Below, one piece after another: positions 6,508-49,798 of a DNA stretch of 64,000 nt (position 1 is the first letter of the stretch; every line of letters starts with the position of its first letter). A program made the translations under genes and the position numbers. The notes beneath the pieces are model-generated. The model saw only the letters and a program-made list of their open reading frames with translations, was not told where the DNA came from and did not search any database. The DNA is from Tribonema minus (taxonomy: Eukaryota > Sar > Xanthophyceae > Tribonematales > Tribonemataceae): positions 186,001 to 250,000 of the forward strand of contig JAFCMP010000028.1 in assembly GCA_017506865.1 (NCBI GenBank), written 5' to 3'.

Positions 6508-9500
6508 ATGGCGGAGCGGCATCAGCAGCGACAGCGGCGGTGGTGGCGGAACGGCGGCTGGAGCATCAGCGGCAAGCCTCTGCTGCTACTGGTGGCTCTC
6601 TTGTGGCGTGCCGCTTACACTGAGGCAGCCAGCGCCAACAACCATGAGACTGCCACAATGGACAATCCGGTGAGTACCTCATGAAGTGCTGCTGCGCCTT
6701 ATCGCCTGCACTGCAACTGCTGTGCTGAAAGTGCGATTGGCGAAAACATACAAATTGGCGATGATGGAGCGGTCGGTTGGCCCAGTGCTGGGCTCCTCTA
6801 ATTGATATGTTCTTGAATAAGGGGCCGAGCACAGCGGCGATTGAAATACAGGCCAGCATTTGCTTTGTCTCGCGGCACAAGGTTTTGAAGTATGACAAAC
6901 CGAAAGGCTGACCCAACGAAGCACGATGCTAGATTACTTCATGGCGCCGTGTGTACCTTTCAACACTACTCCTTTCACCAATAATTCGACAGCAGCCATC
7001 AACATATCAGTTGGTCAGACTCACTTTCAATTACTGTTGTGAAACTGTTGTCCAGTGAGACTATGTCAGCGAACTGGACCCGTATGGAATGGCATGCAAC
7101 CAGCTTGGTTGATTCAATGATTGCTGATCCTTGTCTACTTAACGTTAGGCATAAGATGTTGCAGTTGAACTGCTTGACACACGCGTGTGAAGCCAACAGC
7201 ACCAGATCACTGTCACTGTCTCTGTTGGGAGGATGGCAGACTTGAAGTGTACCACATGCTCACATGTCACTGACAGCTGCATCATTTAAAGCTGGATCAG
7301 ACAGCACTACTGGGACCATTGCCAGATCTGCAACACAGCTAGCTGCCGAAAGCTGCAGATTCGCTCATACTGCCTCTGTAGAAACCTAACAATTCATACC
7401 TGCCAGCAAATGCAAGCTGTGACACTCATTAGTGGACATCAACCACAACGTAGTACATGGTACCTGGTGGCTTGCCAGGAACGTTTGACGCGGCAGGTGA
7501 CCTTGCAGAGCTCAATGCGTGCGAAAGACACCCAATAACATGGTAGGTCAGGACCCATGAGAGCAAGCTAATTCAACAGCCTTCGATTGTGAAGTTGGTA
7601 ACGGTTCTCAGTGCTCAGCACTCGGTAGTAGGAAGGGGTCATGTGCATACGTCAACACTACCCAGGCACCATCTGGTTATCTGACTAGTGCCGGCCGTAC
7701 AGCCATCCCTCATACCACCCTTAGCTGGCCACCATCATGAGAGTGTTCAATGCTCCACAGGATCATCATTTGGTCTCCCCACTTGCTCACACATGTCCCC
7801 CGTTCCCCCTATTCCCCCCTACTCCAGGCTATGCTGGACATCATTGTGATCATCTGTCTGGCCACGGGACTACTGTTCCTGCTATACCTGCTGGTCCATT
7901 ACGTTCGCTCTCTGGATGATGATGCTCAGGCGGAAATCAGTGAGCAGCGGCGGCGGCGCGCAGAGAAGGGCTGCCCCTTCAGAGCGTCGAACGGTTACTC
8001 GTGGGACTATGTGATGGTGTTTGGCATACGCTTGGAAGATGACGAGGTGTTCAATGCGTATCAGCGCAAGTTCACCATCAGAGAGATCCTCAACAGGTGC
8101 GTGGTGGGGGTATATGTGCCTTGCAGGGGCCCAACTCTAACCCTAACCCTAAGGGAAATGCAGTGGTTGTAGGCTGAGGGAAGTCAAATGACATGCGATG
8201 TCAGGTGCCTCATTTCCAACAACGGCTTGTGGCATTACAATGTTGGCATCTGCCATCTGCTTGCAGGTCGGCTGGTTCACCTGGACTCCCCTCTTTACCA
8301 ACTCCTGCACATAACAGATGCAGCCCAGGTCAACCCGACGTATCGGTTTGTGTACAGCAGCAGGCTGGCTACACCAACTGGCAACCTTGTGTGCAGTTTG
8401 GAACTGAAGTTGTGCAAGCTGTTGCTCAATACAATGTGCAGCATTGTACAGCTGCAGAATGCTCGCATGCAAGCACGAGGCAGTGCTGACAATATACTTC
8501 GAAGTATCTGCTTTTCATGCCTGAGGTGCCAAAGTACGCATAGCGATCACCCGCAAGACTCAGCCTGAGAATCAGACTCACACGCACTCCATCTAACATT
8601 GGGCCTCTAATTACTTGTTTGAACACAAACTGTCAAAGGTGATGCAGTGTTTACGGTCTTTTCAAGGACCTGGCAGCATACTTTCATGCAGCACGAGCGA
8701 AATAAGCCAGACAGCGCTGCCCTGAAATACAGGCTTGATGTGAGCGGCATGTCAAGCCTAGGGGAGCGGCCTTCTTGTGGTTCTGAGGTTCAAGTTTAGC
8801 TCGCACGTCAGCACGTCGTTCCCGAACCACTTGCAACAGTTGCGGCGATTAGCCACAGTTCCTGTTCTTGCCCCGGCAGCAGCTTGTCATACCTACTACA
8901 ATTACCAAAAGCCCAGATAATAGCCGCATTGCTGAACATGACACCTAATGCTAGCCCTAACCGCAGGCTAACCCTAATCCAGACCTCATTAAACCCTAGC
9001 CCCTGCAGACTTGCTGCTGGTGGCATGGAGACACACATGTACTACAAGAAAAACCTAGAGCTCTACGTACGATCTTGTGATTTGTTGCCACAAATACAGC
9101 TCCAGTTTCTGCCGTCTGGCAGTAGCTTTTCATACCTGCCACTTGCAAGGTCCAGGCTTTTAACCCTGACCTTAACCATAGCCCTATCGCTGACCAAGAA
9201 ACCTGACCAAGGCTCACCCTAGCCTACCCCTAATTTCTGCAGACTTGCTGCTGGTGGCATGGAGACGCGCATGTACTACAACGCTCAGCGCGATGAGATC
9301 TGCTGCAAGGTGCGCTGCCCGGTGGAGCGGCTGCAGAAGGAGGCAGGGCGCATTGGCTACAAGTGAGTCACGCGGCATTGCTTTAACCCTAATCCTTGGC
9401 TACAAGTGAGTCACGCAGCAGAACCCTAACCCTAATCCTTGGCTACAAGAGGGTCACGCGGCATTACCCTAACCCTAGCCCTTGGCTACAAGTGACTTCT

Positions 9501-12500
9501 GCAACCCCAATCCCTAAGAGCAAGCCTGACTTCAACACCACTTGCCGCATTGGCTACAATTGAGTCACACTCCCATGGCTTTGACCCTGCCCCAACCCTA
9601 CACCTACCTGTAAATCCATTCTGATCTCCAGACCTAGTCCAACCTTTAGCCTTGCTGTGTTGGAGGATCGGCAAGTGCTGCTGTGAGGAAGATGCACCAG
9701 GAGTGGCAAATGTCATACCTCAAGACGTACTTCAATGAGTGTTGCAAAGCGCAAACACAGCACAAACACTGTGTTAGCTACAGGTTGACGCAGAGGTGCA
9801 AGGTCTAAGCCTTTGGCACTCGCATGTGCTCAGAGTACAATCTCATGTTACTTTGCAACCCCTGGCACATTCCACTGGCAAGTCTGACTTACCACAGGGG
9901 CTTCAGGGATACGTGCTACAGCGTCAGGCGGTGCGTAACACAGCACACTCTACGCGAGCTGCACTGCCGTGAGTGCGAACTGACGAAGCACACCTCACAG
10001 CCCACAATATTCACAGCCCATAGCAGGGCTGGAGAACGTACTTGGGGTCACGATAGCAGCTTGAGAGCTTCATGGTGGCGCCCTGACTTTGCACGTCCAT
10101 CGTGAACCTGATGTTGCACAATGGCTCTTTCATGATTGATGAATCGGCATTCAGCGGAGGGGCCTTTGGTGACATGTTTTGTGGAACACACATTCATGCG
10201 CACGCAATGGACCTAATCCCTCAATTGCCCCAGTGCCACTGTGCCGGACTCCACTTGCCAACTGCTGTTGAAGCTCTCTGCACTGCAACACACATGATAG
10301 CATGGTCGCCTAATTACCTACTTCGAGGTATGCGCCATGCCAATGTAGCCATAATTGCAAGTCTCTGTTGCCACTTCATACCCTGACTCCCTGCTTGGAG
10401 TCCTGGTCTGTTGCCGGCAACACGCTCTGTTGCAGTCAGCCCAAATCAGGTGCCGCAGTCCTATGCGATCAGCTGATTGAGCTGCTGTGGGTCTGTGACG
10501 ACTGCTGAGTGTCGTGGGGTTTCACTGATCGAGCAGTGTATGTGTCCTAGAGGGGGGGGGGGCACGGTGCATGGCAGTGCTCACATTGCTGCACACACAA
10601 AGGCGCCAGAACCCGGATCCTAACCCTCATCGTACTTCTACACCCTAGCCCTAACGGTAGCCCTAACGTCGGCCCTATCCCCGACCCTAACCCCCAAGCC
10701 CCTTCGCAGACTGCTCCTAAACTTCCTCATCCTGACCCTAACGCTAACAATGATCCTTGATCCCAGCCCTAGCCCTACACCTAATCCCTGACCTCAACCT
10801 CAACCCAACCTTGACCCCCATCCTTCTGCACACTGATCCCAGCCCTAACACTACACCTCACTTCTAACCTCAACCTTAACCCTAACCCTGACCCCAACGC
10901 TTTTGCAGACTGCTCCCGGACTCTTCCGTGCTCAAGCCCTAACCCAAAAACCTTGCCCTGACTCAAATCTTATCCTAACTCTAGCCCTAACTTTAACCTT
11001 AACCCTAACCTTGTTCTCAACGCTTGCGCAGACTGCTCCTGGACTCTTCCGTGCTGCGCTCCACCTGCCAGCACGGCCGCCCCGGGCGCTGGTCAGGCCT
11101 GGTCATTCAAGACGAGCACAATCAGTGCCGCTACGAGCCCTACGAACACCTGCACGCACCCTACCTATCCGACAGACCTGACATGGAATCGCTGTACAAG
11201 CGCTACGGGGATGCAGCGGGGGCGGGCTCTGCCCCCAAGATTGTGTTCCGGGGGGTGGACCGGCTTAAACTGATGTACACGATTATGGTCGCGAAGAGCA
11301 GCGAGGGGGGGTGCAACCTGGACATTGTGAAGCTGCTCAAGTACAAGGCGATACTGGGGTTCTTTCCGCTTCACGACAAGGTGGAGCTGAGGCTGCTGCA
11401 GCGGGCGTGGTTTAGATACGTGCAGGCCCCGTGGGCACAGCCGATCCAGGTGAGTCCCGTTGCAGCGTTGCGCGCCAATTGCCCCTTTCAACACACCCAT
11501 TGGAGGCAAGTTAGTCAAAGGCAATGTCAGTAAATCTCTCTCTGTCACTGGTGCCTTTGCAACCGGAGTCGTGACTTGCGGGGAGCCTGTGCCATGATGA
11601 GTCATGAGTCATTCAAATATTCTGCAGGCTTCCCCTCATCCGCACATCCTTCTGCTCTCTCCCCAACTGTGCACTTTGCTTCTGGCTACAGGATGTGAAG
11701 GACTACTATGGCGAGAAAATCGGCCTGTACTTCCTATGGCTCGGCCACTACACCACCTGGCTACTGCCTGCAAGCATATGCGGCATACTAGCCTGGATCA
11801 ACGTGGCAGCCGCAGGCAACGACCCTAACGTACCCGGGACAGCAGCATTCAGCGTGTTTGTGGCGCTGTGGTGCACCATGTTCACTGAGTTCTGGCGGCG
11901 GCGGCAGGCCACGTACACCATGAGGTACCTTTGTTTAAGAGATTTAGGTCGATGATTATGACAACGTGCAGTTAGTAGCGCCAGCGGACTTCCTCACAAC
12001 CTACAGGCAGAAATGACCGATCGTGCAGTGCAATAAGCTTTGGCGCCAAGAATTGGGGTTAGGGTTGGGTAGGGTTGGCATCCTAGGGTACAGGTTAGGG
12101 TTGAAGATAGGCGTGCTTCTGCAACCCCCTCCTCTTGAGCTCCTGATGCAATCTACCATGCGTGACAGACAAGCCATGTGCACATGTCTTTAAAGTTCAT
12201 TCCAGCACGAGTTCGCCATGGCCATGAACAGGCCGGCAACAGTTAGAAATGCACCTTGATTGCGTAGGCAATGAAGATAATGGTTTATCACAGGTCATCA
12301 TCAAGGTGGCCCGCCATGTAAGGGCATGTGACTCACCGCTGCCTAGTGCCCTAGGGATAGGGCTAGAGTCGCGCTCAGCCCCCTTCCTCTGCACCAGCAA
12401 GGCCTGGCTGCCTGAAGCGATTCATTGCAATCGTCACAGGTTGAGTTGCCAGTTTGTGCTGAGAGAGGCGCTGGTAGTGTTCAAAAACAACTCTCAAATG

Positions 12501-15500
12501 CATGTGCAGCACCACTGGAGTATGTCAGGCATCACCTGAGCAATGCTACAGCACACAATCGTGGCATCATACAATGCAATGCCTGTAGCCCTACGCTCCC
12601 AACACCCACTCACAGTGGACATGCAATGCAACGCACATGACTCATTATCAGGTACCTGAAGTGTTTTATAATGGTCCAACACAAATTTTCTGTTCTGTTT
12701 GCATGCACTCGCTCGCTTGCTGCACGCGCACAGGTGGGGCATGACCGGCTTTGAGCAAGAAGAGCAGACCCGGCCGCAGTTCAAGGGCACACGCAGCACC
12801 AATCCCGTTGACGGACGGCCCATAGACTACTTCCCGAGGTCCGAGGCCACCAAGCGTTTTGTGTTCAGCGCAACGGTGATCACGGCACTGGTGTGCGTGG
12901 TGATAGCCGCCGTTGCGTCTATCTTTCTGCTCAAGGAGTTCCTGGTGGCGGAGCCGCAGCACGACAGGATGCAGGTGCGTCACTTGCGCAGTTTGCAGTT
13001 CAAGTTGAAGTTTTGTTGCTGCAATCATACTTGAATGTGCCGTATCCCTCTGGCAGACTCTGCGTGACGATATTGGTGCGTTTGGTTGTCAATACTTTAA
13101 GAAGTCTGACCAACTCAACAAAAGTCAAAAGACTTGATCGTGGTTTCAGCGGCATCAGTGTTGGAATTGATCAGTCATTGCCTTGTGTGGCCACATGAGT
13201 CACAGAGGCGCAAAGCTGAGCAGCTCATAGTGCTTGCATACCCTACCTCAAAGCATCTTCAACATGCAGTCACTGAGCACTATATGATGCACCGTGAAAA
13301 GCAGCTCTGGGGCTGCTCTGAATGTTGGAAGTGTTGAGGTTGAGACTCGGTTTGGGCTACGTGCCCTAGATTAGGGCGCCACACTACATGCATGCATGAC
13401 TGCATACATGTGCTGAACCAACTGATCACTTGCAAGTCTGCTACAGCTACGGAGCAGGGTATCTGACAGGTCAGCACCCAACATATGTACATGCATACCT
13501 GCCTGCCGTTTTCTACACAGGTGGCGGGTGTGGACTTGACTACCATCATACCATCCCTCTGCAACGCGGTACAAATCCAGATCATGAACGCAATCTATGG
13601 CAGCGTGGCCATATGGCTCAACGACCTGGAAAACCACCGCACAGACACAGCATACGAGGACAATCTGATTGCCAAGACGTTCATGTTCCAGTTCGTCAAC
13701 AGCTACGCGTCACTGGTGTGGATCGCGTTCATCAAGGTACGCCCCATGTTCAACTTCAAAACTGAAGTGAGTCGGGACTTGCACCTTGCATGTAGCCATG
13801 AACAGGTGGGCATTTTGAGCTTACAAGACAGTGCTATGCCTCACATGCTCTGCAGAGCAACACATTGCTCTGTTGAATTTGCTGCCATGTCTCTGTGTGT
13901 GTACGCGCGTGACACAGCGCTCGCAGCTCAAAGTCAGTATTGCTCAACATGTGATCATGTATGGTGTTGCCGTGCTTCTCTTTGTGCGTTTGTGTTGCTC
14001 ACCCCAACCAAATCTTGATCCAAACCCTCACCCTTGTTCTAATTCTGATTCTCGTCCTGGTCGATATGCGTACGCAGCCACGTGACAAGTGTGTGGACAC
14101 CTGCATGAATGAGCTGGCCACCAACCTGGGAGCCATATTCCTCACGCGCCTGGCGGTGGGCAACCTGACACAGGTGAGCACTGCTGTTGGCTCACAACCC
14201 TAGCACTAGGGCAACATAGCACAGCTGTGCATCGCTGCTGGTAGCACTAGGGCAGTGTGTGTTCTGCTGCTGGTACACACCTGGTCTGCATTGCCAGCAT
14301 GTGTTGAACGTCCAAAGCATGAGCCTGCCTACATCAACGCAGCGACTGTTGTGTTTGAAGCTGTTGGTGGTCTTTGCTATCAGCCTGTGCTAACATTGAT
14401 GCTCGACAAGTGATTGATTCATCCGGGTGTGATCATTTCTTCCCCAATGTTGTCACCATTTCAATGAGTGCATTGCTGTTGCCTGTCACTGCACCTCCCG
14501 CAAGGGGCAGTGGCCAAGTACGCGAACTGAACGCTGGATGTTCACGTGAAATTGAGACATCAAGACTAGTGTCCCTCATCTGCATACATTTGCTAGCATC
14601 AGTGGCAGCCTTGTAGCACTCTGACCCACCTGATGGTTTGGTTGCTCACCATGCAACCGGTGTCCAGTGGCAACGACGTGAGCAACCACAAGATGCCAAC
14701 ACCACATCGTCGACACGTCACATCACACCGTGCTGACTTCTGACAGTGACAAGCGTGCTATTAAGCAGCTTGCCATCTCTCCGCTGCGGCAGGTTCTGCT
14801 CCCATTGCTCAAGGCCCGCGCCCTTCAGCGCCGCTCCGCAGCAGCGCTCGACCCCGAGCGAATGCCCAGCATCGCTGAAAAAGAATACGTGCTCGAGATC
14901 TACGACGTCATGCTGGGCCCCTTCAACGACTACGCAGAGATGGCCATTCAGTTTGGCTATGCTACGCTTTTTGTGGCGGCTTACCCCCTGTCGTGCCTCA
15001 TGGCGTTCATCAACAACTACATTGCGATCCGTGTGGACGCCTGGAAGCTGCTGCAGGTAAGCCTTGTGGTTGTGTAAGGTAGATATGTAGGCTGTTGCGA
15101 GGGCCTGACAAGCCTTCTTACTGCGAGCTGCTGTTTGCGTTGCATGTCATTCATCAGTTGCATGGCCCTGTGTGTAGATGCAACGGCCAATAAGCAGCCC
15201 TTCACTTGAGCACTCGCTACTTAACGGTTGGCGGTGCTTTTGTCATTGTCATGACGGTTATCAGTTACCGTTGTTCACCAGCAGCTACATTGGGTGCTAT
15301 GTACACACGCAAGCGCTGCAGCTCCTGTGGTAGCAATTGTAGCACCCCTTGAAGCGGTCAGTGCAGGCACAAACGCATCACCAACAACACACTCTAACAC
15401 GCGCGTACTACGCACGTACCATGTGTGCACTACTAATCTCAAAAGAATGTGATGAATTTTCTTAGCATGTATGCTAACATGCACCTATATATACATGCCC

Positions 15501-15892
15501 TGTGCTTTATGTAGGTATGCCGCCGCCCGGAGCCCCGCGGCGCCGAGGACATAGGCACCTGGCACACCATCCTAGAGATCATGGGCGTCATATCTGTGGT
15601 CAGCAACAGCGCTCTCATAGCGTTCACTAGCGACCTCTTTGCAGGGCACTCCACCGCGCAGCGCATCTGGATCTTCATGCTCTTTGAACACGGCGTGATG
15701 CTGTTCAAGTACGCGCTGGCAGTGCTCATACCGGACGTCCCGCAGGACGTGACGATACAGCTCGAGCGTGAGGAGTTTGTCCTGGCCAAGGTGCTGCACA
15801 ACGAGCCCGATGACGATGACGATCCGCCTGTTAAGGAGGATGGGGCGCTGCTGTCGGACCGCACCATACGCCAGGAGGATGACGACTGGTAG
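6508..15892 (+). CDS. Anoctamin/TMEM16 family membrane protein (10 exons)
   Basis: Exons: 6508-6669, 7828-8096, 9243-9362, 11032-11449, 11692-11924, 12734-12974, 13521-13736, 14078-14173, 14793-15056, 15515-15892. All introns are GT-AG, phases agree, and the product is about 798 residues. TMEM16 proteins are dimeric Ca2+-activated ion channels and/or lipid scramblases of plasma or internal membranes. Hallmarks: an N-terminal cytosolic-type domain, then DYYGEKIGLYFLWLGHYTTW at the first TMEM16 helix, FWRRRQATYTMRWG, FVNSYASLVWIAF, an ELATNLGAIFLTR segment, and the C-terminal FEHGVMLFKYAL with an acidic tail. Exon 1 encodes a basic, signal-anchor-like hydrophobic stretch and exon 2 adds a strong extra helix (AMLDIIVIICLATGLLFLLY), which is unusual for the family; the exon 1-2 join is the least certain. 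A second in-frame donor at 13767 (GTGAGT) would lengthen exon 7 by 10 codons. A GTG in frame upstream is ignored in favour of the ATG at 6508. Confidence 0.92.
8805..9053 (+). repeat. Echo of anoctamin exon-3 acceptor and exon head
   Basis: The acceptor TGCAG plus about 45 bases of exon 3 recur at 9004-9053, 234 bp before the real exon (9243). Agreement is nearly exact over the first 24 exon bases (ACTTGCTGCTGGTGGCATGG). Upstream flank is also duplicated: CAGCAGCTTGTCATACCT near 8876 pairs with CAGTAGCTTTTCATACCT near 9119. The echo carries a full AG acceptor. Confidence 0.85.
9354..9570 (+). repeat. Five-copy echo of anoctamin exon-3 donor with CCCTAA-type spacers
   Basis: The exon end and donor TTGGCTACAA|GTGAGTCACG is followed by near copies at about 9398, 9440, 9482 and 9551, spaced about 42 bp in the first four. 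Spacers are rich in AACCCTAA. Copies 2 and 4 keep GT after TACAA. Confidence 0.85.
10610..11031 (+). repeat. Degenerate CCCTAA-type repeats with echoes of the exon-4 acceptor
   Basis: This intron tail is largely degenerate AACCCTAA units. Within it, GCAG|ACTGCTCC plus following exon-4 bases recur at 10710 (short) and 10909 (longer, reading ACTGCTCCCGGACTCTTCCG), before the real exon at 11032. Confidence 0.8.
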
Positions 15893-17471: not shown

Positions 17472-20400
17472 TCAGCGTCGCTCCGGAATTTTCTCCAAGA
17501 ACTTTCCAGAGCCCAGCTCGATCTGGTCCTCAATATCGGCGTACTGCTCCCGAATGGCCTCCAGCACTCTGTCATCAGGGCTCCAGAAGCCGCGGCCCGC
17601 CGCTTCAAGCATGCGCTTGAGAATGTTCTGGAACGCCTCCGGATTGTTCTTGCGCAATTTCTGGGCCATTTCCGGGTCAAGAGCATAACGCTCCGCCACT
17701 CCATCGTAGACCCACTGGAGATCGTGCGCAGAGTCGAGCAAGAGCGGTGATCAGTGCCAGTATAGGAGAGGAGTAGGGCGAGCACAGCATAAGGAGCAGC
17801 AGTCAACAAGTGACAGTGCATATCGCAGCGCATGTTGATGTTGGGTCCTGTTGGGCACTGACGTGGCTGTTCATGTTTTGCTTCCTGAGTTCTCAATGAT
17901 TAATCCATGCACTAGTCGCGAGTCAAGTCTCTGCTTGGTTTAAGGGTAGGGTTAGGGTATGTCCCTAACCCTAACCCTAGCCCATAGTAGACCACTGCCA
18001 CTGCAGTAAGTGAAGGTTGCCGGCAAAACAGAAGCAAGGGGGAACTGCTTCACCATGTGCAGTGCCGCCAAGAGCAAGCTGGTGTGAGGGTTACGAGGAC
18101 ATGCGTGGTACTAGAGAGCTTGGGGCACGTGAATTAGCTCGACACACCAGCCCTTTTTGCCATGCGAAATATCATTAGGTAACTTCTCTAAATTGCCAGC
18201 GTACTTGGATTTCTCAGCCCGTGAACACTCGTGTTGCACTTGACGTGCACCACAGTTTCAAGCTGCTCCTTCAGCACCTTTGAAGCAGAGGGCATCAGGT
18301 TACCAGGGCACTGGTACAGGAATTTGCGCAACAGTACTCATGTGTGAGAGACTGGACTGATAAGGTCTTCACAAAGGTCAACGCTCTGCGCATCAACAAG
18401 CGCAGACTTATTTTATCATTAACGTCCATGTCTGTTGGAGATGGTCCAGCCATGTTGACGAGTTGGTCAAGCCGCGATTCCTTGAATTGAAATGGCGTCC
18501 CAGCACGAGTGCTGCATCGATGAGCTATCATAACATCATGCTGTTATGAACCCACATTGGCCACCTGCCTCATTGCCTCGGCGATTCAGCTACAGAGGCA
18601 CATATATGGTATGACCCTTGAATTTGAACATGAGAATCAGGATTAGAGTTAAGGCTCAATAAAGGTTTGGGGTAGGTAGGTAGGTATGTGTGTACCCTGT
18701 ACCTGGTCTTGGAAGTCTGCAGTGCCGCTCCATCCAATCAGCGCCGTCATGCGCTGCGAGATCTCATAGGCGCCGCCTGAGCCCTGCGCTGCCATCGCTT
18801 CTGCCCACTGTCGACAATGAGAGGCAACATCATTGAATGATGGAGGTGAAAGGAGTGCAGCTGACCATAGCCAAAAAGGCCACGGTGGCAACATATCATC
18901 ATACACAGCCCGGTGATTGCGATTCCCTTCATGCCAGAGCATGAGGGTTAGGGTTAGCCATTGCTTCTGCGGCAATGTCGGCAGTGAGGGGCATACTTAT
19001 TTGATGGTGAAGACAGATGAAGGTGAAACGGGGCAGCTGATCAACGCCATGAAACCGCATTGAAATGCGCGACATGCCCCCATTGTGGGTGAAATCATAC
19101 ATATACTTTTACATAATGTTGACGTTGTGGGCTGCCACTGCCTGTGTTCACGGCCACAGCTGATTTATCTTATGAGGTGCATGATGTACAAGCGCATTGA
19201 TGAAGAGCGCTTGCCACTGCTTGCAGCGCACGCAGTGTCATAGCACTTATCTAATGGCAGCGTGTCATGAAGGGGCTGGTTGGGCAGCATGAGGGTTGAG
19301 GTTAGCAGGAGGAGGCGCTCCATAAATGGGCATGACAGCACCAAAGTTCTACAGCAGCACTCGCATCACCGCAGGTCTCGTTGCAGTGCAAAACCTGGTG
19401 ATTCAAAGCATGTCGTGATGCAATGCCAGCACATACACGTAACGTCCCAGTTGCAAGCGATCGACCCAGTCATATAGCACATGTCACTTCCGTTTTCATG
19501 CATTGATTACCTTAAGGTTGAACATCACACCCAAATTGGAGTGTGTGTTTCAGGTAGTGCAACCAAGGGCTTACATGCTCTGGGTAATGTATGCCGCCGA
19601 TGCCCTGGCTTTCTCCTGGTCTGAAGTAGAAGTATCAAACAGTCTACATACATGCAGGAAAATGTATAAAGTGTATGCAAAACCCTATGGTGACATGCTT
19701 CAGCAAACAGTGGAGCTCGGAGCTCACCTGGGTAGTGATCATGTAGGGTGTGATAAACACAATTGTGACATGCTTCAGCAAGCAGTGCTACCCTCCGCAT
19801 TGAGGATGTAGGGTATGAAAAACACTATTGTGACCTGCTTCGGCAAACAGTGCGCACCTTGGGATTGAGCATCTTAGAGCGGTACTCCAGCCGCAGTGTG
19901 GCCTCCAGCTCTTGCGGCTCGACTTTCTTGCTGAATGCCTCTATGATGCTCACACCCACTTTCTTGCGGTTTTCAGGGCCCTTGGCCACCTCCGCTGCCC
20001 GCTTCAGAGCCTGCATGAGGGGGTAGGTAGGTACAAGGGGTGATTAATCACTGATTATTAACCCTAACCCTAACCCTCACCCTAATTCTGACCCTATACG
20101 CTGCCCGCTTCAGAGCCTGCAAAGGGGATAGGCAGGTACAAATAAGCAATCATTAACCCTATCTAACCGCAATCCTCACCATAACCCTAACCCCAACCCT
20201 AAACCTAACCCTAACCCTAACCCCAAGCGAACCCTTACAGGGTAAGGAAAGTCACATCAGTAGTTCTGGGTAAAAGCAGCACAGGTGTTGAGGGCACACA
20301 GGCTGCAGCGCACAATCCGCTTATGATCATGATAATGAACTTCATCAGCTGTGCGGTTCTGTTCTGCACCCCCCTAAATCAAGATCGGCGTGTTGCCTAT

Positions 20401-40452: not shown

Positions 40453-40593
40453 CGTTATGCGCGAAATTGCTGCGCTACTCTTACTCATCTCTGGTTCAAG
40501 ATTTGCATCAGCCGATCCACGTCACCTGTTGAGTGTTGAACTTCTTGTCAGTAGAGAACTCATCAACGGGGCCTCGCGTGCGCTAGAGCTGCA
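40453..40593. promoter_or_regulatory. Compact bidirectional promoter between chlH and the ABC transporter
   Basis: Only 141 bp (105 if the chelatase starts at 40488) separate the two divergent start codons, so both genes should be driven from this stretch or from within each other's 5' UTR. An ACGT core (CCACGTCA, 40518-40525), the class of site used by bZIP factors, is present. No clear TATA box is seen. Confidence 0.6.
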
Positions 40594-43500
40594 ATGCAGC
40601 GCAGCAACAGGATGCGGCGGCTGCCACTGCGGCCAGCAACATTGCTGCTCCTGCTGCAGCCGCTGCCGGATGCCTGTCTAGGCTTTCACCAACATGTGCA
40701 TTCGCCGATGCTGCGCTCCGGTCTCTTACCAGGGCGCACATCGTCGGGTCCGCAGATGGGACTACGGTCGACACTCTCTGTGATTGCTAAAAAAGCGTCC
40801 CGCAGCAGAATTTTGACGGCGCTGCGCTCCACAGCAGCTCCTGCAGCCCTCAAAGCGCCTCCGACGTCGGCGATCAACCCCAACCATGTCCTGACACTGG
40901 CCTCAATTCAGGAGGCAGATGAAGCTCGATTCGCTCGGCAGCAGCTGATGGCGAGGGTATTGAAGGACGGCGGAGCCTGGCAACTTGCCAAAGGATTGTT
41001 GTTGGCATTCGGGAGTACAGCAGCAGCGCTTGGCATGCCTCTCGCATTCGCCAGCGTTGTCACGGCCCTGCTCGACCCTGTTCGTTGCGCAACGCGCTTA
41101 GGCAGGGGAGTGGCGGTGGTTGGCGTGCTGTACATAATCGAGCCTGCTCTGACGTATATGTACGTCGCACATATGACGCGCATCAGCGAGAAATTCACCA
41201 CGAGGCTCAGGGTGGACACCTTCAAGTCCATCCTGACCAGAGACATGGGGTTCTTCGATGCACAGCAGGTGAGTTGATGCAATCGTCTGTTCCTCAAGAT
41301 GCATGGCATTACGCATCGTGCATCATCGTTACGTGTGTGCTTGTTGCCATGCAGGTGAAGTTGCAAGTCGTCGAAAGCACCAGTAGTGTCACATGGTGCA
41401 GTACACTTCTGAAGTATATGATCGCAAGAGGCCTCGATACTTGAGGATTCGATTTTTTAACTCTGGGCACGCCATTGACAAATATCCCATGTGCTCTGCA
41501 CTGCCTGCATACGCGGTCGCATTTGCCTGAAGAGTTTAGAAATGCATACAGACAGCAAGGCCTGATACTGGGAAGGTTGTGGCTTCAGGACCTCATACCA
41601 CTGGGATGACTAACGTCCAGTGCAGCACAGCTGTGTTGAGGCAACTGATGCATATAAGCGCTGCTGAATTCCACACAGAAAATACTGACGTTACTGCTGC
41701 TGTGGAAGTTGGTGACGCACCTCGCCCGCACCCCCCCTCCCCCTCTCCCCTCAGGTCGCCCAGGTCACCGCGCCCGTAACGGCAGATATTGCAGCGGTGC
41801 GCAGCGCGGTACAAACGAACCTACAAAAGGACAGGGGCGTGCGAGCGCTGCTGGAGTCAGTGCTGGGTCTGGTGCTGCTGACAATAATGCAGCCGCAGCT
41901 GGCGTGGATATTTGGCGTGGTGATACCGGTGGTGGCGCTGTCGCTGGCGGAGGCGCGCAAGTCGCTGCTCGCTGTGGCAGGCACAGAAGCGGCAAGCCTG
42001 GCCAAAGAGGTACATCCACCACCTGGGCGTTTCTCGCCCTGAGCGAGAATTCATAATAAGTACATACTGCAACTTTGAAAACTTCAAGTCGTGATATGTT
42101 GCTTCAAGGCGAGATATCATGTACTTCAAAGTATAGAGATCTCTGAGTCGTGTTCATGTACCAGCGGTCGCGCAAAGTCGCTGCTTGCTGGCGGGCACGG
42201 AAGCGGCAAGCCTGGCTAAAGAGGTGAGGTACCGGATGCATCCTTCAAGACTCAAAGTTGTGGCATGTTACTCTAAGACACAGACAAGTACGTCAAGGAG
42301 GCGCGCAAGTTGCTGCGTGCTGTGGCGGGCACAGAAGCGGCGAGCCTGGCGCAAGAGGTGTTGTCGCCAACTTCTTCTGTATTCTTCAGGTTTCACAGAT
42401 GTGGTTTGGTGATGGTCAAGTAGAAAAGGGAGCTGCAGAGGGCGTACGACTCCAGGTACGAGTCATCAGTCTCGGGTCGTACCCACTAGAAGTATCATCT
42501 CATTGGCTTCTAAGTCAACTACCCCTGGATCGAAGACTTGCGATTGTGAAGTACTCATGCTGCAACTTCGACAGTCTGCGAAAGTGTGAGCGAGCCTGAT
42601 AAGAGCGGTGCGAGTTTGCAGATTTGAGTAGTCTTCTGACGAAAGCTCAATCACGTACCAGGCTCTTTAACCGAAAGCAGATCACGCGTGCAGGCTAGCA
42701 CGCCACACCGCACCAGTGCATAGTGCAGAGGCAAACGGAGGCAGCCACAAGGTGACACACACACTCGTGGTGTTACCGGAAAGGAAGCTGGTGAAGGAAG
42801 TGATATTACTATCAACAGCAAACCTGCGCGTGCCAGCTCAGGATTGCTGAGTCACCTACATCAATGATCTGGAGCTGATCTCGAACAGCTCACGAACAAA
42901 ACTGCACTTCAACTACAACCTTAAGTGCAAACCCCACCTAGGGCATCTAACCGCAATTGTGCAAAAGCGCCATACTGTAACAAATCACAGATGAGGTTGA
43001 TGGGCTTTTGCTTCACTTGCAACCTTATGTTGAGTGTATCTCTTACTGCCTCAGAATGTTCTTGCAACGCCCGTGCATACGTAAACCGCTTGAGCCACTC
43101 ACTCACGGTGCGCAACACACCCCAACCCTGACCCTAACCCTTATTGTGACGCCTCACACCGCTTGCGGCACTCACGGTGTTCAACACGCCCTAACCCTAA
43201 CCCTAAATGCGACACCTCACGTTGCACAAACTGCGTGTCACAGGCGGGAGTGGCAGCTGAAGTTGTGCGAAATGTGCGCGAGGTGCGGAGCTTTGGAACA
43301 GAGAACCGTGAGCTTGCGCGATTTGAGAGAGAGACAGTGGCAACAACACAAGCTGCAAGGGCACTGGGCACTGCCGCTGCGAAACTGGAGGCGTGCAATA
43401 GGGCGGCCATATATATGACCATTCTTTCAGGTATGTGGAAATGTATGCACATTCGTTACATATGACTACACATCATATCCATAGTAATGTGTGCTTTGAT

Positions 43501-46500
43501 AACTCATATACTGTGTAAGTAATGACATTATACTAGAAGTCAGTACTGCTGCTATACTGGAGGTGTGCAACAGAGCTGCGATGAATATGACAATTCTCTC
43601 AGGTACATGTACATGTATGCACGCACACCATGACAGGTGCCCTGTGAACTACGCATGTACTTTATAAACTGTGATGGGCATGCACATACATCATTTCAGA
43701 AGCACTGCTGCAAAGCCAATTGCCGTGTGCGTGAAATAGGGACGTCATCTACACAACCATTTTTTCAAGTGTGCGCATATGTCATCGGCACGTGCACATG
43801 TATGTGCGTGCATCTTTTTTTCACCATACTGAGTGATTGTTGCCATACCTATGCAGTGCGTACACAGTAGATCCCTGCAAAGTGACGCTGTTCAGCCTGG
43901 CAGTGGCACTCCATACCACACACGGCCCCCCGCTCGATTGAGCAAGTACTGCGCAATTACATGGAAGAATTATATTCAGCAGCCACAGGACTGCGTTTTG
44001 TTGACCAAGAACATTGCGTGGCATGGCCTACAACACACTGGTTAACTTCGTCCGTACAATTCTGAGATCTCTCTCATCTTGCACATCGTTGCCTGCTGTC
44101 GCAGTGTTCACATCATCTTGAAAGTTGAAGCATCGCGCAGCACGTCATATACCACATTGGACAACTCGCAGCTGCAAGATGAATCCTCTCAACTATTGGC
44201 TCGCATTTGCTGCAGTGGTGTGGTGGGGCGGAAAACTGGTGGACAAAGGCAAGATGCCTGCTGCCCTATTGGTCAGCTTCATTGGCTACTGCTTCAGCCT
44301 CAACTTTGCCATTCAGGTGACCCGCAAAGCTTGGCTACAGTACTGACTTCACAACTTGTCAAAAACTGGTTCTGAAATATACCGTCAAGTGTTGCTATCA
44401 CCTGAAATACTCAAATATGGCTATGACTTTGCTGTTCAGGTGACCCGCTACACATCTGTTTGATCCAGGTGATTTGAATTTTACATTGAATATTGACATC
44501 AGCTTATGTAATCGGCTCTTGCCTCCGCTTCACCCTTGCACTTCAAGCGAACCTGACATGTACTGCTCTCACTTTGTGATTTGGCTACCTCTACCTGCTA
44601 CACCACCGACCATGGCCAACAAGCTCATGCTGCGAAGAATCAATATAAATAAGTAGTCCACAGGTCACATTGAGGTTTGAACTGCGTCTTCTTTGCTTGC
44701 CCGCCAGTCACCACCTAGGGTGCAATGCAGCCATGCTGACGTCAAAAAAAGTTTACAAACCCAGCGAGAGGCATGCTTCATCACATCAAATCTCAGGACT
44801 CATTGCACAGTTGTGCAGTGCTCTCGCACTGTTCACATGTCTCGCTGTCACAATACATTCAGCACGCCCTTGCGCGCTTTGCAATACCATCTCTGTCATA
44901 ACTTCAACTTGATTTGCAGTACGCAATCGCAATGCCAATAAAGAGACTTCGAACTTGGTTCAAGTGCTCAGGCGGATTCAATGGCTCTTAGCGCATACCG
45001 TCATTGCACTGCGCACGCTGCGCAGGGCTTCAACTACTCTCTTGCGCCCTTAGCGGTGGTACAGCACAAGAACTACAACTTGAAGTTTATCGCGCCATCA
45101 CCCGCCTCCCTCAATCTTCAGTACACTCACCGCATTGTCATTGCACACTGCGCAGGTCGTGAACTGCAGCCTTGCGCCCTGAACGCCGCGCGGTCTGCAG
45201 ACTTCAACATGAAGTTTATGGCGCCATCACTCGCCATCACTCCACCTTCACAACAGGCACCGCATCATTTGTGCACGCTGCGCCAGGGCTTGAACTACAG
45301 CCTGGCAGACGCCAAGAAGGCCTGGGGAGCACTGCTGCGCATGTTCGCAGCGCAGCATGACACTTCAACTCAGAAGGAATTGTGACGATTGAACACTCTC
45401 GCGCCACTGCATCACACTCACCGCACCCGTCATCTCTGCGCGCTACGCAGGGCGTGAACTACAGCCTGGCAGACGCCAAGAAGGCCTGGGGAGCACTGCT
45501 GCGCGTGTTCCGCGTTACCTACCCCAGCGCCCCCCCCGCCCCCCCTCCCCCCGCCCTGTTGGCCTGGAGATCATCCCCCCAGAGCAGTTCAGGGGGCGCG
45601 TTGTGTTTAGCAAGGTGTCGTTTCACTATCCCACACGAACGGATGCGCCAGTGCTCAAAGGCGTGGATTTGGAGCTGCCAGCGGGGAAGGTGACGGCGCT
45701 GGTGGGGGCCTCGGGGGCGGGCAAAAGCACCATCGCGGCGCTGCTCAGCAGGTGAAGTAGAGTGGCATGTCAACTTCAACGATTAGTCTTTGACTGAAGT
45801 TCACAAGCGTAGCTGCTCAGCAAGTGAAGTGGCATGTCAACCTCAACGAGTGGTATGGGCCCAAATTGCATCATGGCAACGCTGCTGAACGCTGAACTGG
45901 TATGTCGACTTTATCAATGGGTGGTGGCATGCGAACTGCCAAGTAGCTCTACTGGCTCGTGTGATGCTGTGCTCTAGCCAAACTTCAGCTCAGTGTCTGG
46001 CGCTGCATCAGTTCCTCAGCAGGTAGGTAGGTAGACTAGGACATGCTCAACCTCAACTGTTACAGCAGACTGCAACAACTTCACTATCGGCACCGCCGCC
46101 CCTTGACCCCTCAGTAAGCAGTTTCTTTCTCATTCCTCTGATTACCTTCCCATTTGTACTTAGTGGGTTCCTCATCAGCTTTCGCGCTCTGTTTTTAGCG
46201 ATGCGCAACGGCGCTGACATGGTGTCAGATCATGCATGGCTCACATAGCAGGTAGCGCACCGGTACAGCGCCCTAGTTATATATGTGGCTAACGCGACGT
46301 CACTTGCAGCGCTCGCGACCAGCGCAGGTACAGCCCTTCAGCACTCCGCTCGTGGTGCAGGCAGCAGCGGCTCGGCATCTAGTGGTCATGGCGCAGCATA
46401 GCCACTCTCGCCATGCCTGGGCGTGCTGACTGACGCATGGTCGCGACCCTCATCACGAGCTGCGCGCGATCTGATTGGCTGGTTTCCGATTCATTCACTT

Positions 46501-49500
46501 AATTGTTCTTCACGGCCCTCCAAATGGCGCTGTGAATCCATCTGCAATATGCCACAACATTCATGTGTTTTTCTTTTCATCCATATTCACGCAAAAAACG
46601 GCTGCGCAGAACGGCCGTAATACCTGAACCATCTGCGCTGAATCATTTCTGAATCACACGATATGCCTACATCTATACTTTGATTCTCACCCACAGGTAT
46701 GCTCCGCTCACGCCATGACAAATCGACGGGATGTGCAAGTGTGCACCTTGACTCTACAGTAGCCCTTCCCCACTTCATATCCTCAATTTCAAGGTCTTCA
46801 TTCAGAATGCAATGTTACATTGACACACAGCTTTTTGTTCCTCAAACTGCGCCCGCAGATTCTATGCTCCAACCGCTGGCACGATAAAGATTGCTGGCAT
46901 CGACAACTGTGCACCTTGACTCTACTGTGATAACTGCTAATAACTGGCGTCTGCGCGCATCCCCATATCCTCTACTTCAAGGTCTTCATTGCATGCAACT
47001 TTACGTTGAAACAAGCTCTATGTTCCTCAACCTGCTCCCGCAGGTTCTATGTCCCGATCGCCGGCACTATAAAGATTGCCAGCATCAACAACTGTGCACC
47101 TTAAACTACAGTTGTAACTGCCTAGCACCTCTTCTCTTAAAATATCATCTATTTCTTAAGAGTCTTCATTCAACATTGAGTTATACATTGACACATGCTT
47201 CTTGTTCCTCAACCTGCTCCCGCAGGTTCTATGTCCCGATTGCTGGCACTATAAAGATTGACGGCATCGACATGCGCGACATCGACCGCACGTGGCTCGT
47301 GCAGCAAGTGGCACTGGTGGGACAAAATCCAGCCCTGTTTAGCGGCACCATAGCCTCAAATATCGCCTACGGAGCGGTGCCACGGGGCGGCAGTGCTCGG
47401 GCACTTCAAGGAGGTGACGTGCCGCTGAATGGGGCCACCATGGAGGAGGTGATTGCGGCGGCGAAGCAGGCCAACGCCCACGACTTCATCATGCAGGTGC
47501 GTCACTGCTCTGTTGAAAATGAGATCATCAGTGGGGAGAGTCACGTCCATTCCCGGCGGCAGGGCCAGCAGAACTATGTCGAGTGGACTCAGCAGCGTAG
47601 GGCTTGAAGTAGGCAATGACATACATGCCACATGGGGTATGCTAGGGGATATTTAAGCGGGGATAGCAGGACACCGAGAGAGCGCCACACACACTGCGGT
47701 GCGCCAGTCACTTTTGATGCATGCATCTTCATCTTGCCCACACAGGCGTGAAAAGCTTGCCTCAGAGATTGGTATTGATTGTTGGTGGCCATGTATGCTA
47801 CTTCAAGTCGTTCGAAGTGCCAAGCTATGTGGCACAATCACGTGAACTTGAGTGTGCAGCCTGCTGCCATGTTCAGGCCTTGTGAGGTGACTGACGCCTT
47901 AAGGTTAGAGCTCTACGCCTGCAAGCAAACTCTATTGCTGGATCTGCGGATCAGGCAGGACCAAAAAGCAATTCCTTACAACCCATTGCGTCGTCTTCAC
48001 TCCGAGGCGACTAGACCATGATGCTCCTGCGCTGCCAACGTGCTGCACACTGCAATTCCTCCCTGTGAATTCGCGGACTCCGCTTGGTGTGGATGTTGCA
48101 AGCGGTAAGGTCGAGGTTAGGGTTAGGGTTAGGGTCAGGGTTAGGTGCACATAGTCATGTGGAAGCGCGGTAGTGGCTTCCTAGGGTTACTTGCAACATG
48201 TGGGATTGGCCCCTTGCATCTGTTTCAGGACTGCACGCTCAGAGGGCACCAAAGAAACTTTGTAAACTTGTGAGAAGGTGTTGACGGCCTGTCCAACGGA
48301 GGTGTGAGCTTCAGCACACTGCTACGTGCAGTTGTTCAGCTCGTTTAGTGATGGGCAGCCAACATGTTTGCACGTGACGTCTCAACACTCGTTATGGTTC
48401 TGCATTCCCTTGTGGTAGCAGCTGATGGCAGGTTTTTCATCGGTCACTCCGCATGTATGTTCCTCTACTGTGAGTATCCCATTCTACAACACTGAACTTT
48501 CACAACTCTTCACACGACACTTCACATGTACCTGTATGCTGGTATGTATGCAGTTTCCTCAGGGGTATGACACCCCTGTAGGCGAGGGCGGTGCTCAGCT
48601 AAGTGGGGGGCAGCGCCAGCGGGTAGCCATCGCACGAGCTATCCTCAAGGATGCGCGCATACTAGTGCTCGACGAGGTACGCCAATGACAACTAGGGTTA
48701 GGGTCAGGATTCGGGCAGGGGTAGGGTTAGGATTAGGCCTCTGAGTCCTGATGAAAATCTCAGTGTGTTTGCCAAGTGTCGCATGTTAGCAAGTACACGG
48801 GCCATCGGAAAGGTGAAGGATTGGGTTAAGTCAGGCTTAGGGATGTATGTACGGATGTGCATTCTATGCTGTGTACATTAACCCTGGTGCCATCAGTCCC
48901 AGACATACCTGTGACCTTCTGTAAAAGTATTGGTTCGGCAGACCAGTGCACTGCTGCTGAGCACTTATACACCTGCATGCGTGAATGTGTGAAGGCATAT
49001 ATGTATTGCTGCTCGGCCTTGTCTATTCCGATCTATGCTGCGCCCGGCAATCAGCGCTACGGCAGAGGTCCTGATGATCAGGCCGTTATTGCATGAAACG
49101 GAGGCACCAAACAATCATTTGGGTTTCAGGACCACTACACACTCGCATGATCTGCACAGTACGTTTAATATGTCGTTGTGGTAACTGTAATCACCCCCCC
49201 CCCCCCCCCCCCCCCTCCCTCCCAATAACCTTGCAACCATGGAAAGAATTGCCACAGCGCTTAACCCCCCCCCCAAAAGTCTCATTCCTCTCTGGTACCT
49301 GTACCATTCCTACCCACCTACCTACCCCAGGCGACGAGCGCCCTTCACACGCAAAGCGAAGTACAAGGGGCACTAGATCACAACGCTGGCATGTTAGTTA
49401 CATTGTCACTGCAATGGATGCGTCGTTGACATCCGTGCCTTGGCACACTTGAAGTTCAACTGCCTTCTCCCCCCCCCCCCCTTCCCTAAGTAAATGTCTC

Positions 49501-49798
49501 CAACCTTTCTGGTACCTGCACCCCTTGCTACCTTACCTACCTACCCCAGGCAACGAGCGCCCTTGACGCGCAGAGCGAAGCCCTCGTCCAAGAGGCCCTG
49601 GAACGGCTCATGCAGGGAAGAACAGTCCTGGTGATCGCCCACAGACTGAGCACTGTGGTCAGCGCCGACAAGATCTGCGTCATCGGCTCAGGAATGGTCC
49701 TGGAAGAGGGTTCTCACAAGGAACTGGTCATGCGCGGCGGGGCGTACACAGAGCTCATGAAGACGCAAGTCAAGAGCTACAGCGTCATGGAGTCCTGA
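40594..49798 (+). CDS. ABCB-type half ABC transporter, probably plastid-targeted (8 exons)
   Basis: Exons: 40594-41268, 41755-42009, 43244-43430, 44141-44316 (5' edge uncertain), 45451-45751, 47226-47496, 48554-48676, 49550-49798, about 750 residues. One transmembrane domain precedes one ATPase domain, the layout of B-family exporters that work as dimers. Membrane stretches are visible around [56 protein letters not shown] and [14 protein letters not shown]. The ATPase is complete: Walker [11 protein letters not shown]-loop [13 protein letters not shown], signature LSGGQRQR, Walker B ILVLDEATSALD and H-loop [11 protein letters not shown]. The N-terminus ([20 protein letters not shown] then CLGF) resembles a signal peptide followed by a Ser/Arg/Ala-rich transit-like segment, suggesting a plastid membrane (inference). 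Substrate unknown. Exon 5 is 301 bases where 302 or 299 is needed; the shift lies in C-runs at about 45533-45556. Confidence 0.92.
42169..42358 (+). repeat. Two echoes of ABC transporter exon-2 tail
   Basis: The exon-2 end (41950-42009) is repeated at 42169-42223 and 42296-42358, each followed by a GT donor (GTGAGG and GTGTTG). The second copy keeps the frame and encodes [20 protein letters not shown] beside the original [20 protein letters not shown]. The first has a 1-base shift. Confidence 0.93.
43540..43795 (+). repeat. Echoes of ABC transporter exon-3 tail
   Basis: The exon-3 end (CTGGAGGCGTGCAATAGGGC ... TTCTTTCAG|GTATG) is echoed at about 43548-43606 (CTGGAGGTGTGCAACAGAGC ... TTCTCTCAG|GTACA), keeping the donor. 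A weaker third copy lies near 43728-43780 (GTGAAATAGGGACG ... TTTTTCAAGTG). Confidence 0.85.
44424..44460 (+). repeat. Echo of ABC transporter exon-4 tail
   Basis: TTTGCCATTCAG|GTGACCCGC at the exon-4 donor (44305-44325) recurs as TTTGCTGTTCAG|GTGACCCGC near 44428-44448, with the donor intact. Confidence 0.85.
44995..45365 (+). repeat. Three echoes of ABC transporter exon-5 head
   Basis: Acceptor plus exon-5 start recur at 45026 (GGCTTCAACTACTCTCTTGC), 45156 (weak) and 45287. The 45287 copy is long and in frame ([20 protein letters not shown] versus the real [20 protein letters not shown] at 45451). Upstream CACCGCA...TGCACGCTGCGCAG strings are repeated with each copy. Confidence 0.92.
45752..46040 (+). 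repeat. Echoes of ABC transporter exon-5 donor region
   Basis: CTGCTCAGCAGGTGAAGTAG at the exon-5 donor recurs as CTGCTCAGCAAGTGAAGTGG at about 45812. Both are followed by GGCATGTCAAC(T/C)TCAACGA. Weaker traces lie near 45880 and 46012 (TCCTCAGCAGGTAGGTAGG). Confidence 0.8.
46683..47225 (+). repeat. Three tandem echoes of ABC transporter exon-6 head (about 180-bp unit)
   Basis: Acceptor plus the first 45 or so bases of exon 6 recur at about 46687, 46863 and 47045, before the real exon at 47226 (spacings 176, 182 and 181 bp). The 47045 copy reads GTTCTATGTCCCGATCGCCG and encodes [14 protein letters not shown]. The shared intronic part of the unit includes CAACTGTGCACCTT and TTCCTCAACCTGCTCCCGCAG-like ends. 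Confidence 0.93.
49190..49375 (+). repeat. Echo of ABC transporter exon-8 head with poly-C tract
   Basis: ACCCCAG|GCGACGAGCGCCCTTC at 49323-49345 matches the real exon-8 start ACCCCAG|GCAACGAGCGCCCTTG (49550), 219 bp downstream. A preceding C-run, TCTGGTACCTG and CCTACCTACC strings are repeated too. The echo reads [15 protein letters not shown] sequence with substitutions and then breaks. Confidence 0.88.

What the first reader, a model, noticed from the sequence alone, without database searches (positions are those of the whole stretch)
8800..49600. Splice-junction echoes: exon edges with their splice sites are tandemly copied into flanking introns
In at least 15 introns of three unrelated genes (anoctamin, chlH, ABC transporter), plus the secreted-protein gene, the end or start of an exon together with its GT or AG site is repeated 1-6 times in the neighbouring intron (units about 40-240 bp). 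Head echoes lie upstream of the real exon and tail echoes downstream, as expected if segments spanning the junction were tandemly duplicated and only one copy kept the full exon. Copies range from near identical to decayed, so the process looks recurrent. It offers a mechanism for intron growth and a large reservoir of decoy or alternative splice sites. I know of no described genome where this is the rule.
Basis: partly seen in the sequence, partly recalled or inferred. Interest (0 to 1): 0.9.

Follow-up and report, generated by a model that had tools for sequence, protein, structure and literature searches.

The report
Copied splice junctions inside algal introns
In this yellow-green alga nearly half of the introns examined contain one or more decaying copies of a neighbouring exon's edge together with its splice site, which suggests that introns here grow to a large part by repeated duplication of their own splice junctions.

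Summary
In 35 homology-checked introns of anoctamin, chlH and the ABC gene, 16 introns (21 junctions) carry 39 echoes of an exon edge with its splice site. At score 34 or more, controls show none: exon interiors 0/64, reverse complements 0/70, far-side introns 0/104. By exon-edge score alone 14 of 35 window introns qualify and 21 of 37 introns of 10 other genes not chosen for echoes. By a repeat-family criterion 46 of 100 do, and 39 of 51 introns of 600 bp or more.

Echoes decay like neutral DNA: codon positions 1 and 2 differ at 0.09, position 3 and the intron part at about 0.2; 2 of 96 are coding-compatible. Repeat families sit at junctions far more often than random placement gives.

Best explanation: recurrent local duplication spanning splice junctions, tolerated because exon definition ignores the copies, then neutral decay. 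Why junctions are favoured is open. One boundary-crossing duplication is published for a potato gene; I found no report of a genome where this is common.

The parts
7828..15892 (+). Anoctamin gene (PF04547), 9 exons: 7828-8096, 9243-9362, 11032-11449, 11692-11924, 12734-12974, 13521-13736, 14078-14173, 14793-15056, 15515-15892 (start of first exon uncertain)
   Evidence: Spliced alignments with P0241 (T. minus), P0242, P0243
9003..9047 (+). Head echo of anoctamin exon 9243 (CTGCAG|ACTTGCTG...), 96%
9439..9588 (+). Tail echoes of anoctamin exon 9243-9362 (9439-9495, 9546-9588); the first lies in a 43-bp tandem array 9353-9495 with exon tail, GT and CCCTAA units
10650..10932 (+). Head echoes of anoctamin exon 11032 (10650-10718, 10864-10932)
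17472..40452 (-). chlH (magnesium chelatase subunit H), about 23 exons, minus strand
   Evidence: Spliced alignments with P0001 (T. minus), P0003, P0004
18957..19043 (-). chlH intron 21 head echo, 73%; the same intron has a tail repeat with 15 exonic nt at offset 65
20099..20161 (-). chlH intron 20 head echo, 78%
21263..21323 (-). chlH intron 20 tail echo, 76%
21658..21746 (-). chlH intron 19 head echo, 90%; 92-bp copy at offset 102, about 10 nt between copies
22469..22808 (-). chlH intron 18, four head echoes
23705..24505 (-). chlH intron 17, six head echoes, period about 145 bp, each with the splice-site region (AG lost in some) and 52-55 exonic nt
27403..27566 (-). chlH intron 13, two head echoes with 7-8 exonic nt
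29963..30248 (-). chlH intron 11, two tail echoes (30222-30248 identical over 21 exonic nt + GTGAGT)
32383..32834 (-). chlH intron 8, two head echoes and one tail echo
35885..35959 (-). chlH intron 5 tail echo, 83%
40594..49798 (+). ABC transporter gene, 8 exons: 40594-41268, 41755-42009, 43244-43430, 44216-44316, 45451-45751, 47226-47496, 48554-48676, 49550-49798 (exon 45451 has an unresolved frame shift near 45516-45540)
   Evidence: Spliced alignments with P0121-P0124; gene start and end from the open frame
42169..42359 (+). ABC intron 2, two tail echoes (56 and 61 exonic nt + GT only; flanks not similar)
43548..43782 (+). ABC intron 3, two tail echoes
44426..44448 (+). ABC intron 4 tail echo
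44998..45346 (+). ABC intron 4, three head echoes (45257-45346: 90% overall, 2 differences in 60 exonic nt)
45812..45849 (+). ABC intron 5 tail echo
46798..47090 (+). ABC intron 5, two head echoes
49275..49361 (+). ABC intron 7 head echo, 83%
52205..52372 (-). Secreted-protein gene: end of last intron with AG (52205-52231) repeated at 52346-52372, among further local repeats up to 53267; gene model not verified

Best explanation
In Tribonema minus, short stretches spanning a splice junction (7-80 nt of exon edge plus adjoining intron) are repeatedly duplicated in place, the nearest copy 70-260 bp from the real site, by a local DNA repair or replication event (INFERRED; microhomology or a few filler bases in the three best-preserved cases). 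Repeat families that touch splice junctions are much more frequent than random placement would give (SHOWN). Each new copy becomes intron sequence because splicing keeps using the site attached to the complete exon; [quoted passage not shown] The copies then drift neutrally while the real edge is held by selection (SHOWN as an average over echoes). Repeated rounds lengthen introns and leave ladders of decaying pseudo-sites (SHOWN as correlation and as a paralogue contrast). Why junctions are favoured is open: a breakage or template-switching hotspot tied to transcription or splicing is my first guess, with exon-anchored re-amplification as a contributor.
For: Echo tests and controls. Replication on 37 introns of 10 genes on 10 other contigs: 21 with an edge score of 34 or more, reverse complements 0 of 74 at that score. 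Far-side introns 0/104 against own-side 20/104. Junction bias: 49 junction families in 40 of 72 introns against 18 internal families (0.30/kb, like 4 families in 12.5 kb non-genic DNA, 0.32/kb); simulated random duplication gives 19% or 29% junction families against 21 of 26 in the window (7 internal instead of 5 with the wider scan); with exons removed, the best intron repeat reaches within 10 nt of a junction in 12 of 40 introns, null mean 1.6, maximum 7 in 5000. Start and stop edges 0 of 14. Neutral decay over 97 echoes: mismatch 0.093, 0.088, 0.202 at codon positions 1-3, 0.18-0.23 in the intron part, 37 of 45 exon-part indels not multiples of 3. Growth: introns with echoes 884 against 539 bp, p 2e-5, 72 introns; 20% of intron bases of 100 introns in junction-anchored repeats; HSP70 paralogue contrast. 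Breakpoints: C41 intron 4, 87-bp copy, 98%, 8-nt filler; chlH intron 19, about 10-nt filler; C41 intron 3, six-base near-match. Exon-proximal choice under exon definition is documented in humans (PMC9225289: abstract and passages read).
Against: Of 82 echoes with testable flanks, 18 are patches whose intron flank is not similar, four of them at 96-100% identity, e.g. exon tail + GT only. Plain tandem duplication with a uniform clock predicts similar flanks, so conversion, later indels or short templated copying is needed for these. The junction bias is helped by the frozen exon copy staying recognisable longer. Echoes are absent in 12 introns of the C522 HSP70 pair and few in C41 (2 of 9 introns). 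Exon definition is untested in this alga. Breakpoints: five contiguous cases were listed and I interpret three; the other two are multi-unit or overlap by about 10 nt.
Confidence: 0.68

Rival explanations
1. Tandem duplications fall at random in genes. Junction-spanning ones only look enriched because the exon copy is frozen by selection, so they stay recognisable longer and keep re-amplifying by unequal exchange with the conserved edge.
For: The frozen copy halves divergence. 26 of 47 echo-bearing junctions have two or more echoes, as re-amplification would give. Internal duplications exist at a baseline rate.
Against: With exons removed the bias remains, though re-amplification could still cause it. 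Simulation with a frozen exon gives 19-29% junction families against 21/26. 21 junctions carry a single echo, against 3.5-6 expected by my arithmetic at the baseline rate. Frozen coding ends at start and stop codons show 0 of 14.
Confidence: 0.2
2. Echoes are functional: alternative or decoy splice sites kept by selection to regulate splicing.
For: 37 of 49 tail echoes keep GT and 35 of 40 head echoes keep AG; the C before AG never differs (0 of 43).
Against: Mismatch at GT (13/106) and AG (5/86) brackets the neutral 0.09; coding positions show no constraint; frameshifting indels dominate; insertion length is a multiple of 3 in 33 of 96 and only 2 of 96 are coding-compatible with an intact site.
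Confidence: 0.06
3. Short exon-edge patches are copied into nearby intron breaks (templated insertion during polymerase-theta-type end joining, or RNA-templated repair) rather than duplicated in tandem.
For: 18 of 82 echoes lack similar intron flanks, four at 96-100% identity; extra bases between copies in two cases.
Against: 47 of 82 have clearly similar intron flanks, several arrays are contiguous tandems, and no reverse-complement edge reached 34 (0 of 70, 0 of 74; 3 of 37 head reverse complements did exceed the other introns at lower scores).
Confidence: 0.25
4. Assembly or gene-model artefact.
For: Only the assembly was available; no reads.
Against: Copies differ by 0-31% at codon positions 1+2 with a 1:1:2 codon-position pattern; the pattern recurs on 11 contigs besides the window's; exon models agree between independent homologues at most edges.
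Confidence: 0.02

Closest known systems
Tandem duplication crossing an intron-exon boundary in the potato RdRp gene (PMC4974935; abstract and passages read)
   Same: A tandem duplicated segment spans one intron-exon boundary and carries splicing signals along.
   Different: One event in one gene, and it created a new spliced intron. Here dozens of echoes lie in existing introns, nearly all without coding-compatible use.
[quoted passage not shown] review PMC3443670, passages read; Hellsten 2011 and Gao & Lynch 2009 seen only as references)
   Same: Tandem duplication inside genes yields new splice-site pairs.
   Different: The model duplicates an exonic AGGT segment and makes a new intron. Here existing junctions are copied into existing introns.
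Human introns from tandem arrays (Zhuo 2007; title seen only in the reference list of PMC3488318)
   Same: By its title, tandem arrays tied to intron structure.
   Different: Paper not held; not compared.
Introners (PMC9860276; start of abstract seen, four terms searched without a hit)
   Same: A recurrent process shaping introns across a genome.
   Different: Introners are dispersed copies that make introns. Echoes match their own intron, or a paralogue's.
Exon duplication / mutually exclusive exons (recalled)
   Same: Exon sequence repeated in an adjacent intron.
   Different: Here only 7-80 nt of one edge with one splice site, decaying neutrally.
Minisatellites in genes (PMC2812944; abstract line and outline only)
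   Same: Tandem arrays in genes.
   Different: Short arrays whose position is set by splice junctions.

Membership tests
[quoted passage not shown]
   Echoes span an existing exon-intron junction
[quoted passage not shown]
   HSP70 introns at the same protein positions occur with echoes (C190) and without (C522 pair); tested for this one family only
Boundary-crossing tandem duplication (potato RdRp type) | Duplicated unit crosses an intron-exon boundary | tested here: met
Boundary-crossing tandem duplication (potato RdRp type) | Copied site is spliced in RNA | not testable with these tools
   No RNA reads held
Introners | Similar copies in many unrelated introns | tested here: not met
   No edge reached 34 in any of the 34 other window introns (highest 33); cross-gene matches of 34 or more in the six ABC regions only among paralogues C1, C146, C335; one further cross-gene score of 36 (C544:4935 head) was not followed
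Introners | Terminal inverted repeats or target-site duplications | not tested
   No search made
Mutually exclusive or alternative exons | Whole exon with both splice sites | tested here: not met
   Exonic part 7-80 nt
Mutually exclusive or alternative exons | Coding constraint on the copy | tested here: not met
   Codon-position pattern and frameshifting indels; 2 of 96 coding-compatible
Minisatellite | Head-to-tail array of near-identical units | tested here: inconclusive
   Some arrays contiguous (chlH17, abc5, C335:6649); 21 of 47 junctions have one echo

The most novel reading that the evidence does not exclude
Splice junctions are a genuine mutational hotspot in this genome: a process linked to transcription or splicing breaks or re-copies DNA around exon edges, so that introns grow mainly by duplicating their own splice junctions, and exon definition is what makes such a genome viable.
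Probability: 0.35. Interest if true: 0.88.

Novelty: new variant of a known kind. Interest (0 to 1): 0.74.

Why it matters
How introns lengthen is usually put down to transposons and small insertions (recalled). Here is a genome in which about half of the introns examined carry duplicated splice junctions and a fifth of their sequence lies in such repeats. It offers a dated series, from identical to decayed, of splice sites that look intact yet are probably unused, a natural test of what besides the site itself defines an exon. Echoes can also record former synonymous states of exons (one case). If the junction bias is mutational, it links splicing or transcription directly to genome instability.

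Tried and rejected
Functional alternative exons: rejected by codon-position, indel and frame tests. Detection bias alone: tested by removing exons and by simulation; a contribution remains possible. Any coding/non-coding boundary: 0 of 14 start/stop edges reach 34, highest 22. This control is weak in places: ends of SAT, V-ATPase and the secreted gene come from open frames only, the HSP70 flanks are 309-510 bp, three of the 14 edges belong to the echo-free C522 genes, and two HSP70 stops were not testable. Low-complexity filtering as the cause of few internal families: 13, 14 and 15 internal against 48 junction families at three settings. The zero counts in non-genic DNA came from blastn missing short offsets and were redone with an ungapped scan (two of its four non-genic families overlap and may be one). 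For the 72 introns different criteria give 47 junctions, 48 or 49 families. Relatives in viral contigs: none for P0001 or P0242. No other eukaryote genome was available, so the ochrophyte comparison was not done. Replication introns were limited to those on which three or more homologues agree: 37, from 10 of the 16 places fetched; six ABC places gave none and all candidates with less support were dropped before counting. The C522 HSP70 genes are near-duplicates, not independent. The ten paper searches listed no report of this pattern as common in a genome; I read listings, not every paper, the library lacks most subscription papers, and the T. minus genome paper was not held under the identifier I recalled.
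Full report
IDENTITY. The anoctamin query built from the window is 100% identical over 92% of its length to a Tribonema minus protein on a 464,115-base contig (P0241). The T. minus chlH protein P0001, from a contig of the same length, aligns to the window with the score expected for full identity. The window is G000:C28:186001-250000 of a 158,181,000-base assembly in 554 contigs.

GENE MODELS. A splice-aware protein-to-DNA alignment was run with the T. minus proteins and with independent homologues (anoctamin P0242, P0243; chlH P0003 Chrysoparadoxa, P0004 Ascophyllum; ABC P0121-P0124). Edges agree except at: chlH exons 1-2 (P0003); a 51-bp split of exon 36837-37197 (P0003); the edge 32919, 12 nt longer with P0004; the stretch 25757-27034 (left out); an extra 69-nt exon of P0003 at 23691-23759, which falls on the first echo of intron 17; and ABC exon 45451, where P0121 aligns partly to the echo at 45287 and P0122-P0124 need a frame shift near 45516-45540. 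This leaves 35 introns, all GT-AG, median 785 bp.

IS IT THERE. See the observation check. By the plain edge score of 34, 14 of 35 introns qualify; with the splice site included in the alignment 16 of 35. Controls: exon interior 0/64 and reverse complement 0/70 at that score, far-side introns 0/104 against own-side 20/104 (window and HSP70 genes, exons of 100 nt or more).

DOES IT REPLICATE. From Pfam hits in the same assembly I fetched 20 stretches holding four other anoctamin-like and twelve ABC-type places. In 10 of these 16 places, on 10 contigs, 37 introns had the same donor and acceptor from three or more homologues. 21 of 37 have an edge score of 34 or more (15 tails, 8 heads), reverse complements 0 of 74. 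Edges beat every intron of the other genes in 14 tails and 10 heads; so did 3 of 37 head reverse complements, at scores below 34. Some edges lose only to paralogues, which have echoes of the same conserved exon. 28 HSP70 introns of four genes add 6 with an edge score of 34 or more. By a repeat-family criterion 46 of the 100 introns have a junction-anchored repeat: 31 with tails, 25 with heads.

WHERE DUPLICATIONS FALL. Among 72 introns, 49 repeat families touch a junction (40 introns) and 18 lie inside introns, 0.30 per kb, like the 4 families in 12.5 kb of non-genic window DNA, 0.32 per kb. At that rate a junction with 80-140 admissible start positions would be spanned 0.02-0.04 times; the observed value is 0.34, an excess of about 8-14 fold by my arithmetic, perhaps half that after allowing for longer recognition of frozen exon copies. 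Simulated random duplication with decay, in the 17 echo-free window introns, gives 19% (exon part up to 60) or 29% (up to 120) junction families. The window has 21 of 26; the binomial chance of that is 5e-11 at 0.20 and 1e-7 at 0.30. With the wider scan the window has 7 internal families instead of 5. With exons cut away, the best repeat of 40 introns has a median distance of 30 nt from a junction (null 141) and 12 lie within 10 nt (null mean 1.6, maximum 7 of 5000). Start and stop edges: 0 of 14, a weak control in places (see Tried and rejected).

HOW COPIES AGE. In 97 echoes of 72 introns the mismatch is 0.093, 0.088 and 0.202 at codon positions 1, 2 and 3 of the exon part and 0.18-0.23 in the intron part; GT 0.123, AG 0.058. 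Frozen exon sites against a drifting copy should give d, and sites free in both should give 2d: this is what is seen. Hence echoes carry no detectable coding or splice-site constraint on average. Echoes at one junction are not independent, so no test is attached. Per-echo divergence at positions 1+2 runs from 0 to 0.31, median 0.065, over 82 echoes with enough sites, which suggests a continuing process. 37 of 45 exon-part indels are not multiples of three. In the C146 ABC gene the echo shares some synonymous states with the C335 paralogue that its own exon lacks.

INTRON GROWTH. Introns with echoes have a median of 884 bp against 539 (p 2e-5, 72 introns); after removing junction-anchored repeats 579 against 488 (100 introns). 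Echo incidence by intron length: 0 of 13 below 350 bp, 7 of 36 at 350-600, 39 of 51 at 600 or more. HSP70: at protein positions 220, 279, 333, 382 and 441 the C522 pair has introns of 198-531 bp (none of its 12 introns has an echo), while C190 has 1726, 786, 793, 957 and 971 bp, four of these five with echo arrays.

BREAKPOINTS. C41 intron 4 holds the youngest case: 87 bp from A-83 to exon nt 4 copied at 98% with GTGAGCTT between the copies. chlH intron 19 has about 10 extra nt between copies. C41 intron 3 has a six-base near-match (TTGATG/TTGCTG) at its ends. This fits end joining or template switching better than plain slippage, on three of the five contiguous cases that one search listed. 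Of 91 exon-edge hits 9 do not reach the junction; of the other 82, 18 are patches whose intron flank is not recognisable, 47 clearly include it and 17 lie in between.

HOW SPLICING COPES. Real and echo sites are often identical or nearly so for tens of bases, so the site alone can hardly tell them apart. In human data, sites closest across the exon win when introns are long, and sites closest across the intron win when introns are short (PMC9225289, abstract and passages). Under the first rule the real site wins in both head and tail arrays; under the second the echo would win. The absence of echoes in introns below 350 bp agrees with this, but echoes themselves lengthen introns, and by residual length introns below 250 bp do carry them (5 of 8). 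This step is inferred.

COMPARISON. A boundary-crossing duplication that made a new intron is published for one potato gene (PMC4974935). A 2012 review calls tandem genomic duplication the one intron-gain mechanism demonstrated in vivo (PMC3443670, passages). I found no description of a genome where junction duplication is common; the ten searches are listed under Tried and rejected, and the library is partial.

LIMITS. No RNA, no reads, no other eukaryote genome. Homologue-based models favour conserved genes. HSP70 models rest on a recalled guide protein. Echo counts depend on score thresholds (34 or 36).

Noticed in passing
Introns of the window and of G000 loci L009-L028: Telomere-type hexamers are frequent in introns in both orientations: CCCTAA 0.68 and TTAGGG 0.64 per kb against 0.24 for equal base use; 12 of 72 introns hold at least two tandem units. 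Sometimes part of an echo unit (9353-9495). Present in 16 of 39 introns with echoes and 11 of 33 without.
   Followed up: partly
25608-28828: The public T. minus chlH model (P0001) skips the exon 27035-27253 found with homologues and reads 67 bp (25757-25823) as coding that the homologues place in an intron.
   Followed up: partly
45257-45346: Very similar echo in ABC intron 4 (60 exonic nt, two differences); one homologue alignment (P0121) is drawn to it. The real exon shows a frame shift near 45516-45540 against three homologues.
   Followed up: partly
L029, L030 (G000:C522): Two HSP70 genes in opposite orientation about 24 kb apart, 77-89% identical in aligned pieces including introns, with short echo-free introns.
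   Followed up: partly
G000:C179:221650-223642 and C90:846742-848762: Two HSP70 places whose first matches have the same length, score and E-value; perhaps a recent duplication or two haplotypes of one locus.
   Followed up: no
L015-L016 (G000:C468), intron D+243..D+647: A 405-bp intron-internal duplication, 96% identical, not touching a junction.
   Followed up: no
4189-5943: Long open frame on the minus strand with 81-bp coding repeats, looking like an ankyrin-type repeat protein (name from memory).
   Followed up: no
G000 ABC genes C1, C146, C335: All three paralogues carry a tail echo of a similar exon of the ATP-binding domain; shared ancestry or repeated origin not settled.
   Followed up: partly
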